A DNA stretch of 56,587 nucleotides from a virus. Position 1 is the first letter of the stretch; each line of letters opens with the position of its first letter. The notes under the pieces were generated by a model, which was given only the letters and a program-made list of their open reading frames with translations, was not told the origin of the DNA and did not search any database. The translations under genes and the position numbers were made by a program. Shown in pieces: positions 7,435-56,159 of this stretch. The DNA lies in IMG/VR virus record IMGVR_UViG_3300047198_000034, positions 1 through 56,587 of that record. One strand, given 5' to 3'.

Positions 7435-7993
7435 ATTTCCCTCTTTTCCACCTTAAAAAATAAAGCATCGAAGCGTAAACCCCAAATGCTTCTCTAAGCT
7501 CAGATGGTGAATAAATCTCTAATTTTGGTAGACCTCCATCGGGATCTAAATAGATATCCATCGGGGTTTTTATCAGTTCCAATCCGTTATGAATTTTAAT
7601 GGTGACTACCTGAAAAGCAATCTGGAGAATGTGCCACGGTTCAGGACTTCCAGATTTCAAATCGAGAGGACCTGGAAGTCTGTCGATGGTTGTCCCCACT
7701 ATCAATTCGGGATGATAAATGGAATATTCAATTTTGATAGGTGTATAATTTTGGTCTTTCCTGAATCGCTTCCAACTTTCTAAATATCCTTGAATCTGAG
7801 GATCAACCGTAGACTCGTCAAGGGTTGCTTTATCCCAAAATTCGGTCGCCCGATGAATAGCCGTTCCCCTTTGGAGATACCATTCATTTGCGTTTCGGAT
7901 TAATCCGGCTTCTTCAATGGTATCGGTTAACCCGTCAATCCGCTTCCCATCCAAGAGGTAGCGATGGTCATTGGTTAAAATTAGTTCGCTCAT
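7403..7993 (-). CDS. PD-(D/E)XK exonuclease (RecB/Cas4-like)
   Basis: This 196-residue protein shows the PD-(D/E)XK signature. There is a conserved His/Glu helix ('GTAIHRATEFW'), then 'VGTTIDRLPGPLDLKSG' containing the metal-binding Asp and catalytic Asp-x-Lys, then a Gln-rich helix ('ILQIAFQ'). The size fits a phage-type single-domain RecB-like exonuclease. It is coupled (ATGA) to the candidate annealing protein upstream, the usual exonuclease/annealase pairing of phage recombination modules. Confidence 0.8.
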   Translation of the reverse strand: MSELILTNDHRYLLDGKRIDGLTDTIEEAGLIRNANEWYLQRGTAIHRATEFWDKATLDESTVDPQIQGYLESWKRFRKDQNYTPIKIEYSIYHPELIVGTTIDRLPGPLDLKSGSPEPWHILQIAFQVVTIKIHNGLELIKTPMDIYLDPDGGLPKLEIYSPSELREAFGVYASMLYFLRWKRGKYGNSRNERLD

Positions 7994-47992: not shown

Positions 47993-48301
47993 TTAAATTT
48001 GGGGATTTATGATGACTTTTATTCGCTTGATCTCGCTTTCCGGGATAAGATAGCCATCTCGAACCCTGATAATATTCATTAAGAATCCTTCATCAATCCA
48101 TCTATAGATTGTTTTCTCTGTTCGTTTTACTTCCTTTGCCGCCTCTTTTACAGTGAGAGTTTTCAATAAGAGTCTCCTTCGATTTTTATTTTTTATTAAT
48201 CTCGGATCAATCTTTCCATCATGTACAGCAATATAGATTGCCTGCAACTGTTCGCCGAATGTTTTAAATAAAAATGGCTGATTTTCCCCTTTTTTTTTCA
48301 T
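47993..48301 (-). CDS. Excisionase/MerR-type HTH protein
   Basis: The 102-residue protein has C-terminal 'LTVKEAAKEVKRTEKTIYRW' plus IDEGFL, a winged HTH of the excisionase (HTH_17) type. It is coupled to the tiny gene upstream by TAATG. A role as a small terminase subunit or regulator is possible from position. Confidence 0.65.
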   Translation of the reverse strand: MKKKGENQPFLFKTFGEQLQAIYIAVHDGKIDPRLIKNKNRRRLLLKTLTVKEAAKEVKRTEKTIYRWIDEGFLMNIIRVRDGYLIPESEIKRIKVIINPQI

Positions 48302-48396
48302 TATTTTACTTTCTTCTTTAATATCTTCTTAGATTTAATCCCACAGGCTTTACAGATATCTTTCCATCCGCTCAAAATAATCTGCTCTTCAGACAT
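48301..48396 (-). CDS. Tiny basic protein, partial HTH-like
   Basis: The 31-residue frame starts at ATG 48396 with an ideal AGGAGG site. 'LSGWKDICKACGIKSKKILK' resembles the first half of an HTH. It overlaps the next gene by one base. Confidence 0.5.
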   Translation of the reverse strand: MSEEQIILSGWKDICKACGIKSKKILKKKVK

Positions 48397-48414
48397 TGAT
48401 CCTCCTAATTCTTA

Positions 48415-48582
48415 TCATTCTGGTATCTCGATTTTAACATTCACAGACTCAAGACCTTGCTCATTCCTAATCACTTTGATGGTAGTGACTTCTATTCCTG
48501 TCTTCTGCTCGAATGCCAGAATCTCATGAAATAATCTGATACTCAATCTTCTTTTCTCATCTGCCAGTTCTTTAAGGTCCAT
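48415..48582 (-). CDS. Small conserved phage protein
   Basis: It has 55 residues from ATG 48582 behind AAAGGAGGAATCAACC; an earlier frame start at 48630 lacks a site. The sequence is helical, then 'TGIEVTTIKVIRNEQGLESV', a pattern seen in small phage proteins of unknown function. Confidence 0.6.
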   Translation of the reverse strand: MDLKELADEKRRLSIRLFHEILAFEQKTGIEVTTIKVIRNEQGLESVNVKIEIPE

Positions 48583-48631
48583 GGTTGATTCCTCCTTTCG
48601 AATTGTCTTTTTTATTTTTTCACCTTTCATT

Positions 48632-48655
48632 TGGCGGTCTAACCACCTACCGCCA
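48632..48655. repeat. Hairpin at the distal end of TIGR array 1
   Basis: TGGCGGT (48632-48638) pairs with ACCGCCA (48649-48655), immediately after the last degenerate repeat. There is no T-run, so it may protect or process the array transcript rather than terminate it. Confidence 0.45.
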
Positions 48656-48657
48656 GG

Positions 48658-48920
48658 GATTTCGCATTGTACCCATGGATTTCAACATTTCAATTGCTCG
48701 CACGAACTCTTTAGATTTCAGATCAACTTTCGCTCGCATATAATTCCTGGGTTTCAGGTCATTCATCGCTCGCATTACCTGGCTGGGTTTCAAGATTTCC
48801 CTCGCTCGCATCCTCTTCCTTGGGTTTCAATAACTGGCTCGCTCGCACACTATCTTTGGATTTCAGCCTCTCCATCGCTCGCATCTTTTTTTTGGATTTC
48901 ACTGGGACCCTCGCTTCACA
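48658..48920 (-). repeat. TIGR-type array 1 (36-bp period, ~14 short spacers)
   Basis: On the plus strand TGG[G/A]TTTCA and TCGCTCGCA alternate, each followed by a 9-base variable segment, giving a 36-bp period; one segment is 10 bases. The reverse strand reads TGAAACCCA and TGCGAGCGA. Terminal repeats are degenerate (GATTTCGCA at the left, TCGCTTCACA at the right). No long frame covers it, so it is not a protein repeat. It follows the 214-residue gene on the minus strand. Confidence 0.88.
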
Positions 48921-48923
48921 TTT

Positions 48924-49568
48924 TTACAATAGAGCAGATCGTTGTATTGTGCTGTTTGGCTTATCGAACATCTTCCTTATGGTGATTGCCACCTGTGCCG
49001 TAATCTTGAGCTTTTCAATCTGCTCATTGAGTTCCTTAACCTTTTTTACGGCGACTTGAAGAGCTTCTTTTGTATGATCATGGGCCAGCTTTTCATTCTC
49101 ATACATACTCTTCCAATCCGTAATTTCCTTTTTAATTTTAGGTATTGGCCAATGCTTCTGGATGATGGCCTCCATCTTAGCTCTGGACAGGGGCATCTTG
49201 TGCGCAATCCCTTCTTGTTGAATCTCTGAAATAACCTTTTCTACTCTCATCCCTCCACATACTCGATCAATCTTTGATACCAAACCGATGCCATACTCAA
49301 GGGCGTATTTGGGGAATTTGGTAAACGCTCTCACATTTTCACGATAGGTTCCTTGGCGAATGGTGAAATTATCCTCAAGATATTCCCAAAAAGAACTCTT
49401 CTTGTATCTTGGATTTTCCTTGAACCGATAAGTTGTTCTTAGATATTCCAAACATTCATACATTTCCTTCTGATTTTCTCTTGATAAGGTGTAAAGTTTC
49501 TTAATCTTGGCTTCCAATTCTGAGATGTTAATTCCATCATATTTATCGTTCTTTTTGATTTCTTCCAT
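48924..49568 (-). CDS. TIGR-locus protein of unknown function (coiled-coil)
   Basis: It has 214 residues from ATG 49568, which has the site AAGGAGGAGATCTCAA. The frame extends 13 codons upstream only because it reads the array's end. The N-terminal half is helical ('MYECLEYLRTTYRFKENPRY', 'SSFWEYLEDNFTIRQGTYRE'). The C-terminal third is a coiled coil ending in NSTIQRSALL. No nuclease motif is seen. It is sandwiched between arrays 2 and 1, with the same A-rich AAAAAAAGGAGG junction as the tas gene, so it may work with the guides or be an inserted regulator. Confidence 0.65.
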   Translation of the reverse strand: MEEIKKNDKYDGINISELEAKIKKLYTLSRENQKEMYECLEYLRTTYRFKENPRYKKSSFWEYLEDNFTIRQGTYRENVRAFTKFPKYALEYGIGLVSKIDRVCGGMRVEKVISEIQQEGIAHKMPLSRAKMEAIIQKHWPIPKIKKEITDWKSMYENEKLAHDHTKEALQVAVKKVKELNEQIEKLKITAQVAITIRKMFDKPNSTIQRSALL

Positions 49569-49590
49569 TTGAGATCTCCTCCTTTTTTTT

Positions 49591-50103
49591 AGATTCGCAT
49601 TGGTCACCTGGGTTTCATGTCTATAATCGCTCGCACCTTTTTCATGGGTTTCAGAATTGGATTCGCTCGCAATGATCCATTAGGTTTCAGCTTTTTGTTC
49701 GCTCGCATTCCTCATCTGAGTTTCGAATCCGTCATCGCTCGTATTTTTGTTTTGGGTTTCAAGCCGTCCCTCGCTCGCACTATTTTTATGGGGTTCAATA
49801 CTTGACTCGCTCGCAATAAACGATTGGGTTCCAAAGACTCCCTCGCTCGCATTACTTCCGTGGATTTCAGAAATGTTATCGCTCGCAGAGTTATTTTGGG
49901 TTTCAACTTCAACATCGCTCGCAGGGGCCTCCTGGGTTTCAAGACGGTAATCGCTCATCCTCTACACTCTGGCCTCAATACTGGGAGAAGGCGCACTCAG
50001 GACTTGGATTTCAACCTCTTCATCGCTCGCACTAATTTGCTGGATTTCAGGGAGGGGGTCGCTCGCATTTGTTAACTGGGTTTCAATCGTTAACTCGCTC
50101 GCA
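49591..50103 (-). repeat. TIGR-type array 2 (36-bp period, ~28 short spacers)
   Basis: This is the longest array. Conserved 9-mers TGGGTTTCA and TCGCTCGCA (plus strand) alternate with unique 9-base spacers in perfect 36-bp phase over about 14 units. A degenerate stretch at 49951-50004 keeps phase (CTGGCCTCA, GAAGGCGCA). The proximal units are read in frame by the tas gene (NASE and ETQ motifs), and a shadow frame of 92 codons crosses the rest; both follow simply from the 36-base period. In minus orientation the conserved segments contain UGA and CGAGCGA, as expected for the sheared G-A pairs of box C/D-like kink turns. Confidence 0.9.
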
Positions 50104-50915
50104 TTCTCCCAATAAAAGGGTTGAATAATGTTCGTATGCCCCATCAAAGCTCCTGTATAAGGTTCTGATACTGTCTTACCCTCAAGAGTCCTTGCAACTG
50201 TCCACCAATGAGCCAGAAATATCTTGACCACTTCATTTTTGGCTGCATTATGAACATGTCCCTTTTCCCATTCAGGATGATTCTTTTGATGCTTCGCCTT
50301 ATGTTGTAAAAGCAGGGCCTTATATGGATGATCATCTTTTTGTCTATTGAATTCCTCACCAATATGAAAACCCACCGTCCGCCCCACCGTTGACCAGTTT
50401 GACAAAGTACCTTTTTTCCGCTTTGGCATAACACCCTCAACTACATGTCTTCCCATATAGGCCCACCATTTTGATATTGTTGGGAAGTCCTTGTACTCCA
50501 ATCGATGCTTCAAAAGACCTTCCTTCGCTGTCTTTCCACAATCAACACATTTTAATTTATGCTCATTCTTTTCCAACTTGCCGCCGCAGTCTTTACAGAC
50601 CGGAATGAATCGATAATAAAACAAAATTATCATTTGGGCTGCAATATAAGGCCCGATTCCTGGTATTTTCTTTGCCCATAATTCCCAAATATCCCATTGC
50701 TTCAACTCCTTTTCAATTTCTCTATTAATCCGACCTTTTACTGTTTCTAATCCTGCCTCTGCCTTTTGTCCCTTTAAAAGCGTATCAAATTTTTCTTCCC
50801 GTTTTTCTCCTGGTAAAGATTGAAGCCTCTGTTTTGTTGATGCAATTAATTGAGTAACCCCTTGATATGTCCTTACCAAAAAATTCAAATATTTTATTCC
50901 CTGTTCGTTTGTCAT
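49962..50915 (-). CDS. Tas protein (Nop/IS110-like guide-RNA-binding protein), no fused nuclease seen
   Basis: The 317-residue protein has an N-terminal coiled coil (about 15-80), then 'KIPGIGPYIAAQMIILFYYR' (83-102), the Gly-rich helix-hairpin-helix found in Nop proteins and IS110 transposases. A zinc ribbon follows (Cys107, 110, 123, 126), then 'FPTISKWWAYMGRHVVEG' and a helical end ('NEVVKIFLAHWWTVARTLEG'). The authentic fold probably ends near residue 269; codons after that are array repeats. No HNH or RuvC motif is visible. Ribosome site AAAGGAGGTGTCGAG. It is proposed to bind 36-nt tigRNAs made from the flanking arrays and target DNA. Confidence 0.8.
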   Translation of the reverse strand: MTNEQGIKYLNFLVRTYQGVTQLIASTKQRLQSLPGEKREEKFDTLLKGQKAEAGLETVKGRINREIEKELKQWDIWELWAKKIPGIGPYIAAQMIILFYYRFIPVCKDCGGKLEKNEHKLKCVDCGKTAKEGLLKHRLEYKDFPTISKWWAYMGRHVVEGVMPKRKKGTLSNWSTVGRTVGFHIGEEFNRQKDDHPYKALLLQHKAKHQKNHPEWEKGHVHNAAKNEVVKIFLAHWWTVARTLEGKTVSEPYTGALMGHTNIIQPFYWENASELTIETQLTNASDPLPEIQQISASDEEVEIQVLSAPSPSIEARV

Positions 50916-50934
50916 CTCGACACCTCCTTTTTTT

Positions 50935-51105
50935 AAATTCGCATCTCTTGCTTGGGTTTCAACCTGACGGTCGCTCGCATAATGTTCCTGGGTTTCAGCA
51001 CGCCCATCGCTCGCATTGTATTTGTGGGTTTCAAAAAGCCGATCGCTCGCATTAGGATATTGGGTTTCAAGCCGATTATCGCTCGCATATTGCTTCTGGA
51101 TTTTA
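50935..51105 (-). repeat. TIGR-type array 3 (36-bp period, 9 short spacers)
   Basis: Same 9+9+9+9 layout as arrays 1 and 2, directly upstream of the tas ribosome site. The terminal repeats are degenerate: AAATTCGCA at the tas side and TGGATTTTA at the other. The junction TGCGAATTTAAAAAAAGGAG (minus) resembles the one before the 214-residue gene. Confidence 0.88.
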
Positions 51106-51285
51106 TTGGCTTTTTAGATTTCTACATATTATCACACTAACCGTTTCATCACCTCCCCACCGCCCGGCATCAAGAATATTAGGATTTTCAGTTTCCAAAA
51201 GAATACGATAGGATTTATCCAAACTCACAAGTGACTTTGCCCGTATTTCCTTAATCACTCCGATAAATTCAATCTTTTCATTCAT
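51103..51285 (-). CDS. Small conserved phage protein
   Basis: It has 60 residues from ATG 51285 behind AAGGAGAAAACGATC. Beta-rich ('IEFIGVIKEIRAKSLVSLDK'). Its stop touches TIGR array 3. Function unknown. Confidence 0.6.
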   Translation of the reverse strand: MNEKIEFIGVIKEIRAKSLVSLDKSYRILLETENPNILDAGRWGGDETVSVIICRNLKSQ

Positions 51286-51298
51286 GATCGTTTTCTCC

Positions 51299-51400
51299 TT
51301 ACCAATATTTAATAACAAAATGACCCGTGATATAAATCATTGTTACCCAAAACAAAAAAGTGATTCCAATTAAAATTGCTAAAATAAGGCTATTTTTCAT
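51299..51400 (-). CDS. Single-pass membrane peptide
   Basis: The 33-residue frame starts at ATG 51400. Its stop overlaps the next ribosome site (TAAGGAG). The sequence is a membrane helix ('LILAILIGITFLFWVTMIYI'). Confidence 0.5.
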   Translation of the reverse strand: MKNSLILAILIGITFLFWVTMIYITGHFVIKYW

Positions 51401-51422
51401 CTTCTCATTTCTCTCTCTTGGA

Positions 51423-52040
51423 TTATTTTTTTAACAAATAACCTATTTCTTTAATCCCATAAAATAATAGGATCTCGGCAGCCTTCATTAAATCAAAAAT
51501 ATTGATCGCCATCTTTGGAGTTACTTCCAGCTCGAATTTGACAGTATCATCGCCATAGGCTTCGATTCGGGGTCCCAATCCTTTAATTAGATCGTAAACA
51601 TAAATCGAAGGTTCTTGATTATCTTCTTTAAATTCAACCCGAAAATAATCGGCTAACTTTTGAATATTAGCTCTTCTTTTTAGGTGATAATCATTCGATT
51701 GTTTAACCTGATTGATGGCCTTTTCGAGTTCAGGCAGATAAACAGGCAAGAACCGTCTTTCGATATCCCTCGCTATTTGCTCAGAACTTTTGGTAACAGA
51801 GACATAGATTGAGGATTTAGATTCATAACAGCCAGATTCCCCCCTTATGGATGTCGGGAAATCGCCAGTAATATGAACTTTCTGCTCAGTAGCGATGGAA
51901 ATCCTGATCTTCTGATATTCCTTGATTAGATGTGCCCATCTTTGCCATTTCATATCCTCATCTGATGGGAATTCTACGCTCATTTTTAGGATAATGGCAA
52001 CTTGACCTATTTTATTTTTAAATTCTTGAGTTTCCATCAT
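51423..52040 (-). CDS. Conserved phage protein, unknown
   Basis: The 205-residue protein is mixed alpha/beta ('IEAYGDDTVKFELEVTPKMA') with a helical end. It begins MMETQEFKN. No catalytic motif is recognised. It sits among early-region genes. Confidence 0.6.
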   Translation of the reverse strand: MMETQEFKNKIGQVAIILKMSVEFPSDEDMKWQRWAHLIKEYQKIRISIATEQKVHITGDFPTSIRGESGCYESKSSIYVSVTKSSEQIARDIERRFLPVYLPELEKAINQVKQSNDYHLKRRANIQKLADYFRVEFKEDNQEPSIYVYDLIKGLGPRIEAYGDDTVKFELEVTPKMAINIFDLMKAAEILLFYGIKEIGYLLKK

Positions 52041-55610: not shown

Positions 55611-56159
55611 TTAAGATGGCGGCTCAAATCTTTTTTTCAACCCCAAAAAGCATTCTAACTGCCCCTTTAAAATCCAATGCCATCCTTCCCAATTACAGAT
55701 TCGGATCTTTTCCTCATCTGTGGGCAGATTTTTTAGGGTTTCCCAACAAGTATTATTATCCAGGATTCTATTTTTGAATTTCTCAAGGGGTGGCATATCA
55801 GCCCAAAACTTCCTAGAAAATGGAAGAATAAGTGTTGAAATCCACTTAGCGGAAATATCAAATATAAAATTAAAAATATATCCGCCTGCCTCGATAGACT
55901 CGCCTGCCTTGATAGACCCGTCTGCCTTGATAGACCCGCCTGCCTTGATAGACCCGCCTGCCTCGATAGACCAGCCTGCCTCGATAGACCCGCCTGCCTC
56001 GATAGACCCGCCTGCCTCGATAGACCCGTCTGCCTCGATAGACCAGCCTGCGTCTAATAGAATCGATATTTCAAACTTCACCAATGTTTTAAAAAATAAT
56101 ATTTTTTTATCATAATCCTTATATTTCTCTAAATCCTTTATTGTTTTAACTACATCCAT
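55611..56159 (-). CDS. Protein with nine hexapeptide-type repeats
   Basis: The 182-residue protein has N-terminal helix, then nine or so six-residue units [GDE][GEW]SI[EK]A (about residues 36-93), then a globular C-terminus with several Trp ('ICNWEGWHWILKGQLECFLG'). The repeat fits a left-handed beta-helix turn pattern. The flanks are ordinary phage-like sequence. Function unknown. Confidence 0.7.
   Translation of the reverse strand: MDVVKTIKDLEKYKDYDKKILFFKTLVKFEISILLDAGWSIEADGSIEAGGSIEAGGSIEAGWSIEAGGSIKAGGSIKADGSIKAGESIEAGGYIFNFIFDISAKWISTLILPFSRKFWADMPPLEKFKNRILDNNTCWETLKNLPTDEEKIRICNWEGWHWILKGQLECFLGLKKRFEPPS
55880..56054 (-). repeat. 18-bp tandem repeats (nine to ten copies)
   Basis: The plus-strand unit CGCCTGCCTCGATAGACC varies only at a few positions (CTC/CTT, CGC/CAG/CGT). 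Near identity at the DNA level signals recent expansion and likely copy-number variation. Confidence 0.85.

What the first reader, a model, noticed from the sequence alone, without database searches (positions are those of the whole stretch)
49951..50103. The tas reading frame runs into its own array
Codons after about residue 269 are array repeats (NASE, ETQ), because 36 is divisible by three and the repeats contain no stop in this frame. The guide array therefore doubles as coding sequence, or translation is tolerated until TAG-free repeats end at 49962. A degenerate but in-phase unit near the stop suggests selection to end the frame.
Basis: seen in the sequence. Interest (0 to 1): 0.7.

Follow-up and report, generated by a model that had tools for sequence, protein, structure and literature searches.

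The report
Guide array inside its effector gene
In this phage the end of the gene for an RNA-guided DNA-binding protein is made of three of the system's own guide-RNA units, read in frame as protein; the same kind of overlap recurs in related phages, so one stretch of RNA may have to serve either as message or as guides.

Summary
A 317-codon TasA gene (50915-49962, minus strand) runs without a stop into a TIGR guide array; base 50103, in codon 271, is the first array base, and TAG lies at 49964-49962. The protein family and the predicted fold end near residue 270; residues 272-316 are predicted disordered. The in-frame part is a complete mini-array of three canonical 36-nt units (predicted tigRNAs 50099-49992), ending in the usual 3'-truncated edge repeat. 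The 'degenerate unit' is the join to the next array: last codons, stop, normal 5'-truncated edge. Relatives argue against a sequencing error: seven of 36 non-redundant loci read through at least one whole unit (1-5), not as one clade (AU p about 1e-5), always in the ETQ/ASE frame; seven more end on the UGA/UAA of their first loop repeat. Openness alone is unremarkable (P about 0.31), two non-tas genes in one locus also run in, and I found no evidence that the peptide is selected. In the nearest relative a translated unit has the same predicted 18-bp target as an untranslated unit here, spacers exchanged. Most likely: recurrent, tolerated overlap of a working array with tas, making messenger and guide use of one RNA mutually exclusive.

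The parts
49962..50915 (-). tasA-like ORF, 317 aa (Nop-domain TasA core plus array-encoded tail)
   Evidence: phrog_4285 over residues 8-267; profile match to TasR 9mty 8.6e-42 and TasH 3.3e-15; Foldseek 9mty 5.8e-11
50106..50915 (-). conserved Tas core, residues 1-270
49992..50103 (-). mini TIGR array nested in frame in the tas ORF: edges at 50103, 50067, 50031, 3'-truncated edge TGCG 49995-49992; loops at 50085, 50049, 50013
   Evidence: labels edge/loop are swapped in the scripts
50064..50099 (-). predicted tigRNA 1 inside the ORF
   Evidence: cut positions inferred from the processing described in PMC12045711
50028..50063 (-). predicted tigRNA 2 inside the ORF
   Evidence: as above
49992..50027 (-). 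predicted tigRNA 3 inside the ORF, ends at the 3'-truncated edge
   Evidence: as above
49962..49991 (-). linker with the last nine tas codons (PSPSIEARV) and the stop TAG 49964-49962
   Evidence: homologous in L001 and L003
49596..49955 (-). main downstream TIGR array, 10 units, starting with the 5'-truncated edge AGCGA 49955-49951
50940..51105 (-). TIGR array upstream of tas, ends TGCGAA just before the tas ribosome-binding site
48924..49565 (-). partner gene (213 aa), found after tas and its array in most related loci
48663..48915 (-). third TIGR array, after the partner gene; its stop precedes the array

Best explanation
This is a phage TIGR-TasA locus in which a complete three-unit guide array lies in frame inside the 3' end of tas, between the conserved core and the last nine codons. 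Shown by sequence: the overlap, its canonical array end, intact repeats, absence of stops, recurrence in several Tas lineages, and a tail beyond the conserved core. Inferred: ribosomes read through, adding a disordered hydrophilic tail of 47 residues that does no harm; the same RNA is also cut into tigRNAs. Because cuts fall inside edge repeats and the stop codon lies 3' of all three units, any molecule processed here loses its tas stop codon, so one transcript can be message or guide source, not both. The likeliest history is that arrays are packed directly against gene ends in these operons and sometimes fuse to the last codons; in one of three frames they end the gene at once (UGA of the loop repeat), and in the ETQ/ASE frame they stay open, so units can accumulate without breaking the gene. 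The feedback consequence follows mechanically if processing occurs, but I see no evidence that it was what selection favoured.
For: Fold and family. In-frame intact array with canonical end. Relatives reading through 1-5 units, same frame: window 3, L001 2, L002 3, L003 1, L010 5, L020 1, L024 2, i.e. 7 of 36 non-redundant loci; not one clade, AU p 9.7e-6, six changes on the tree. Further fused joins where the tas stop is the loop repeat's UGA/UAA: L004, L005, L028, L034, L035, L038 and L033 (read by eye). Tail disordered, pLDDT under 50 at 272-316. Guide nature of in-ORF units: 6 of 6 repeat elements perfect in the window and in L002, against 35 of 41 and 17 of 25 outside; L001's translated unit GGAGGCCCA/TTACCGCCT is the window's untranslated unit 49955 (TTACCGTCT/GGAGGCCCC) with spacers exchanged, which gives the same predicted 18-bp target with 2 mismatches, the only such pair among 309 units, none in 10 shuffles.
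Against: No RNA or protein data: translation and processing are both inferred. L001's two in-ORF loop repeats have box D UG changed to UA, so its nested units may be dead. Read-in is not special to tas: the partner gene and an ORF of about 80 codons in L002 also run into arrays, so a tas-specific regulatory role is not implied. L086, 76% identical, has no nested units. L010's nested repeats are only 5 of 9 perfect; L014 and L018 stop inside the first unit.
Confidence: 0.62

Rival explanations
1. Selected switch: the array is kept inside the ORF because Tas-dependent processing destroys its own message, giving negative feedback on Tas level.
For: Tas is required for processing and cuts fall inside edge repeats (PMC12045711, passages); the stop lies beyond all nested units; read-in loci are not one clade; tas joins are fused to the array more often than partner joins, 16 of 33 against 2 of 17, Fisher p 0.013 without correction for kinship (counts by reading).
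Against: Most loci lack nested units; close relative L086 lacks them; L001's nested loops look decayed; partner and another ORF of L002 read in as well.
Confidence: 0.18
2. Protein function: the ETQ..ASE tail is selected as a flexible acidic or hydrophilic module.
For: All nine fused-and-open tas loci use the ETQ/ASE frame and none the basic KP/RA frame; in-ORF spacers have a slightly more coding-like score than outside ones, p 0.019.
Against: The score difference is lost against stop-free outside spacers, p 0.12, and charge and hydrophobicity do not differ significantly; length varies from 1 to 5 units; an ORF in L002 uses the KP/RA frame.
Confidence: 0.08
3. Pure accident without consequence: nested units are never processed and the tail is neutral.
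For: Openness is expected by chance, P 0.31; the tail is predicted disordered.
Against: Nested units are as intact as the rest in the window and L002; shared target between an in-ORF and an outside unit.
Confidence: 0.1
4. Sequencing or assembly error hides an earlier stop.
For: Single metagenome-derived record.
Against: Independent contigs L001, L002, L003 read in in the same frame and L001 and L003 share the join.
Confidence: 0.02

Closest known systems
TIGR-TasA systems (Faure et al. 2025, PMC12045711; sections 4, 6, 8, 44 and passages seen)
   Same: Nop-domain protein without nuclease, dual-repeat array with 9-nt spacers and 36-nt units, phage location, arrays before, between and after genes, 5'- and 3'-truncated edge repeats at array ends.
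   Different: Here a complete mini-array is inside the tas reading frame and tas ends beyond it. In the main text, term searches found 'open reading frame' and 'stop codon' 0 times and 'overlap' once; I did not read the supplement or fig. S14.
TnpB / omegaRNA (Nety et al. 2023, PMC10278001; passages seen)
   Same: Guide RNA is cut by the effector out of its own messenger; a figure legend shows substrates with TnpB coding sequence next to the omegaRNA scaffold, and the authors discuss feedback by the mRNA.
   Different: One scaffold and guide against tandem guide units; unrelated protein; in TIGR systems Tas is required for processing but is said not to cut (PMC12045711).
TasR 9MTY and TasH 21KL/9W04 structures
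   Same: Profile and fold matches.
   Different: Those carry RuvC or HNH domains (names from the entries and the paper); this protein has none detected.
IS110/IS621 recombinase with bridge RNA
   Same: Weaker fold match, 9t56 and 8wt9, best E 0.016 and 0.029.
   Different: No tandem guide array (recalled and from PMC12045711 passages).

Membership tests
TIGR-TasA | Nop-domain Tas protein | tested here: met
   hmmsearch 9mty 8.6e-42, TasH 3.3e-15; Foldseek 9mty 5.8e-11, probability 1.00
TIGR-TasA | Dual alternating repeats with 9-nt spacers, 36-nt unit | tested here: met
   edge TGCGAGCGA, loop TGAAACCCA; 23 units, three of them nested in tas
TIGR-TasA | Arrays begin with 5'-truncated and end with 3'-truncated edge | tested here: met
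   AGCGA after stops and TGCG at ends; the nested array starts with a full edge in the window and a truncated one in L001-L003
TIGR-TasA | No nuclease domain | tested here: met
   no HNH or RuvC hit in Pfam; 270-residue core aligned over its length with Tas relatives
TIGR-TasA | Array transcribed and processed to 36-nt tigRNAs bound by Tas | not testable with these tools
   needs RNA sequencing
TIGR-TasA | Rho-independent terminator after the array (described as typical, not as defining) | tested here: not met
   no terminator-like site in 48300-51500 by a simple scan
TasParB partner | ParB-like protein operonic with tasA | tested here: inconclusive
   partner found by tblastn in 34 of the 41 loci other than the window; all-helical with a long C-terminal helix, but no ParB hit in Pfam, PDB sequences or fold search
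TnpB-like guide from own mRNA (likeness, not membership) | Guide RNA overlaps the effector's own ORF on the same strand | tested here: met
   overlap shown by sequence; co-transcription and processing not tested; the proteins are unrelated

The most novel reading that the evidence does not exclude
Guide units nested in the effector's reading frame form a built-in switch, gained repeatedly: as Tas accumulates, tigRNA excision removes the stop codon from its own message, so guide making and Tas making exclude each other on each RNA. New guides also change the effector's C-terminus, so the array is at once an RNA guide store and a variable protein tail.
Probability: 0.18. Interest if true: 0.75.

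Novelty: new variant of a known kind. Interest (0 to 1): 0.48.

Why it matters
tigRNA maturation and array growth are stated open questions in the TIGR paper (discussion passages). Loci where the guide array is inside the effector's ORF make two of them testable: whether processing competes with translation, and how units come and go (unit number differs between close relatives at the same tas end). The exchanged-spacer pair between the window and L001 is what a two-strand target read in either direction predicts, a possible clue to how spacers are taken up. Annotation matters too: Tas proteins predicted from such loci carry guide-derived tails that are not part of the fold.

Tried and rejected
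Selection on openness: joint P 0.002 over six loci (0.0075 with the rate of the same loci), but the loci were chosen for being open, so I do not count it. Coding-like spacers: p 0.019, lost (0.12) when stop-containing outside spacers are removed. Frame bias: no fused tas locus uses the KP/RA frame, (2/3)^16 = 0.0015 if all 16 were independent, 0.04 if only eight lineages are (eight is the number of changes between fused and not fused); one non-tas ORF does use it. Self-targeting: with correct spacer pairing the window holds no site closer than 3 mismatches for any of 23 units, no better than mispaired controls. The shared target of the window and L001 was not found in viral contigs or in three host genomes. 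A DNA pattern for the stop-bearing join found only L001's and L003's contigs. ParB fold for the partner: nothing. Plasmids: no Tas match; phages: two partial matches.

Not in the counts: distant loci L036, L037, L039-L070, L085, L092, L093 were read by eye only, as were L100, L106 and L107; among the distant ones L037, L060, L062, L064 and L067 also read into array repeats. Loci L071-L084 and L096-L105, L108, L109 are the same contigs found again.

Rows dropped before counts: six near-duplicate loci (L008, L011, L019, L026, L030, L087) from 42, leaving 36; of these L013 is a boundary case and L029, L089 could not be classed, leaving 33. For the tree also L009, L033, L034, L038 were left out (32 rows), and L027, L029, L089 and L091 were left unscored for the join-type counts. 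The automatic scan missed the nested unit of L003 and gave a false read-in for L027; one search misplaced the first loop repeat in several loci (tas: L016, L017, L018, L023, L032; partner: L021, L031, L035), and I classed those by reading the sequence.

Full report
What is there. On the minus strand the window carries, in order, a TIGR array (51105-50940), a tas gene (50915-49962), the array that follows it (to 49596), a partner gene (49565-48924) and a third array (48915-48663). Units are 36 nt. I first labelled TGAAACCCA 'edge' and TGCGAGCGA 'loop' in my scripts; by the published definitions (PMC12045711, sections 4 and 8 read) it is the other way round: arrays begin with AGCGA and end with TGCG, the halves of TGCG|AGCGA, so TGCGAGCGA is the edge repeat and the A-rich TGAAACCCA the loop. 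A tigRNA is then AGCGA + 9 + TGAAACCCA + 9 + TGCG = 36 nt. No count depends on the names except the target pairing, which was redone.

The overlap. The tas ORF passes its conserved end (phrog_4285 matches residues 8-267, profile 25-272 of 277; core alignment to residue 270) and enters an array at base 50103. It reads three complete units whose six repeat elements are perfect, a 3'-truncated edge TGCG at 49995-49992, nine more codons and TAG at 49964-49962. After the stop comes a 5'-truncated edge (AGCGA 49955-49951) and a ten-unit array. AlphaFold2 with 32 sequences gives a confident core and pLDDT under 50 for 272-316. The core is a Tas protein by profile (9mty 8.6e-42) and by fold (9mty 5.8e-11), with no nuclease domain found, hence TasA-like.

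Is the open frame surprising? In this frame (T|GAA|ACC|CA and T|GCG|AGC|GA) only four codons per unit can become a stop. Outside ORFs 253 of 321 and 279 of 325 half-units are open, so three open units have P about 0.31, and in the window the frame stays open for 92 codons after the stop as well. Openness is therefore no evidence of selection.

Relatives. Scans of viral contigs and GTDB contigs gave 41 related loci with a well-defined tas end besides the window, 36 non-redundant including it. Seven read through at least one complete unit: the window 3, L001 2, L002 3, L003 1, L010 5, L020 1, L024 2. L014 and L018 enter but stop inside the first unit. In seven others the first array unit also overlaps the last codons, but the stop is the UGA or UAA of the first loop repeat (L004, L005, L028, L034, L035, L038; L033 by eye). 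Seventeen end before the array; one is a boundary case and two are unclassed. The seven reading loci are not one clade (AU p 9.7e-6) and need six changes on the tree of 32 cores. All nine fused-and-open loci use the ETQ/ASE frame; none uses the KP/RA frame.

The stop-bearing unit. It reads as the end of one array (TGCG), a linker with the last codons and the stop, and the start of the next array. The stop commonly lies 22-25 nt before the next full loop repeat at other gene/array joins as well, the partner gene included. In the window, L001 and L003 the join is in 36-nt register and alike (35/45, 32/45 and 27/45 identical pairwise); at its spacer positions the excess over ordinary unit pairs is clear only for the window and L001 (12 of 18; 1 of 68 ordinary pairs as high), not for the window and L003 (8 of 18; 10 of 85). 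L002 lacks it. Relatives without nested units often end in short tails such as KKAA or EKAA just before the array, so the nested array may sit in front of an older C-terminus; the tails are too short to prove it.

Controls against a special role. Among 17 partner genes followed by an array, L002 reads in and L016 ends on the loop UGA; 15 stop before (classed by reading; L086 and L091 are degenerate). Tas joins are fused more often (16 of 33, Fisher p 0.013), but kinship is not corrected for. In L002 another ORF of about 80 codons runs through many units, first in the KP/RA frame. Read-in is thus a general result of packing arrays against gene ends.

Are the nested units guides? In the window and L002 they are as intact as the others. 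In L001 both nested loops have lost the G of box D. The strongest hint is a pair found by comparing 309 units of all 36 loci: L001's second in-ORF unit has A = GGAGGCCCA and B = TTACCGCCT, and the window's first unit after the stop has A = TTACCGTCT and B = GGAGGCCCC. Since A and B bind opposite strands (PMC12045711, section 6), exchanged spacers give the same predicted double-stranded target, 16 of 18 bases alike. It is the only pair with three or fewer mismatches, with none in ten shuffles. The target itself was not found.

How it most likely works. Inference from here: the tas message is translated to the stop at 49962, giving a tail of 47 residues outside the fold. If the nested units are processed as published systems are (36-nt RNAs cut in edge repeats, Tas needed but not the cutter; passages), every cut lies upstream of the tas stop, so the cut molecule can no longer give a complete Tas. 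Whether this is a used switch or a tolerated cost cannot be told from sequence; I give the switch 0.18.

Known and new. TIGR-TasA is known. A guide array inside the effector's own reading frame was not found in the main text of the discovery paper by term search, and two literature searches pointed to no other paper that I judged from its listing to treat tas-array joins; the other listed papers and the supplement were not read. The closest parallel is TnpB, which makes its omegaRNA from its own mRNA (PMC10278001, passages). I rate this a new variant of a known kind.

Noticed in passing
window 49955-49920 and L001 4880-4915: Two units with exchanged A and B spacers (16 of 18 target bases alike): the same predicted double-stranded target in opposite orientation, the only shared target among 309 units of related loci.
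   Followed up: partly
window 48924-49565: Partner gene conserved after tas and its array, found by tblastn in 34 of the 41 loci other than the window; all-helical with a long C-terminal helix; may be the published TasParB but no ParB similarity was found.
   Followed up: partly
L004, L005, L028, L034, L035, L038 tas ends: The tas stop codon is the UGA/UAA of the first loop repeat and spacer A of the first guide encodes the last three residues of Tas.
   Followed up: partly
L002, about 7560-7980: A non-tas ORF of about 80 codons before the array runs through many array units, first in the KP/RA frame, then after a shift in the ETQ/ASE frame.
   Followed up: partly
L060 876-987: Distant Tas lineage whose repeat is GAGAAACCC (no UGA) reads its array in the frame that is closed in the window's family.
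   Followed up: partly
window 51103-51318: A 71-codon ORF ends on the UAA of a changed loop repeat at the start of the upstream array (TAAAATCCA).
   Followed up: no
window 50538-50597 (tas residues 107-126): Four cysteines (107, 110, 123, 126) invariant in the alignment of 32 Tas proteins, like a zinc-ribbon insert.
   Followed up: no
window 55611-56159: ORF with repeated SIEAGG/SIKAGG peptide units on the minus strand.
   Followed up: no
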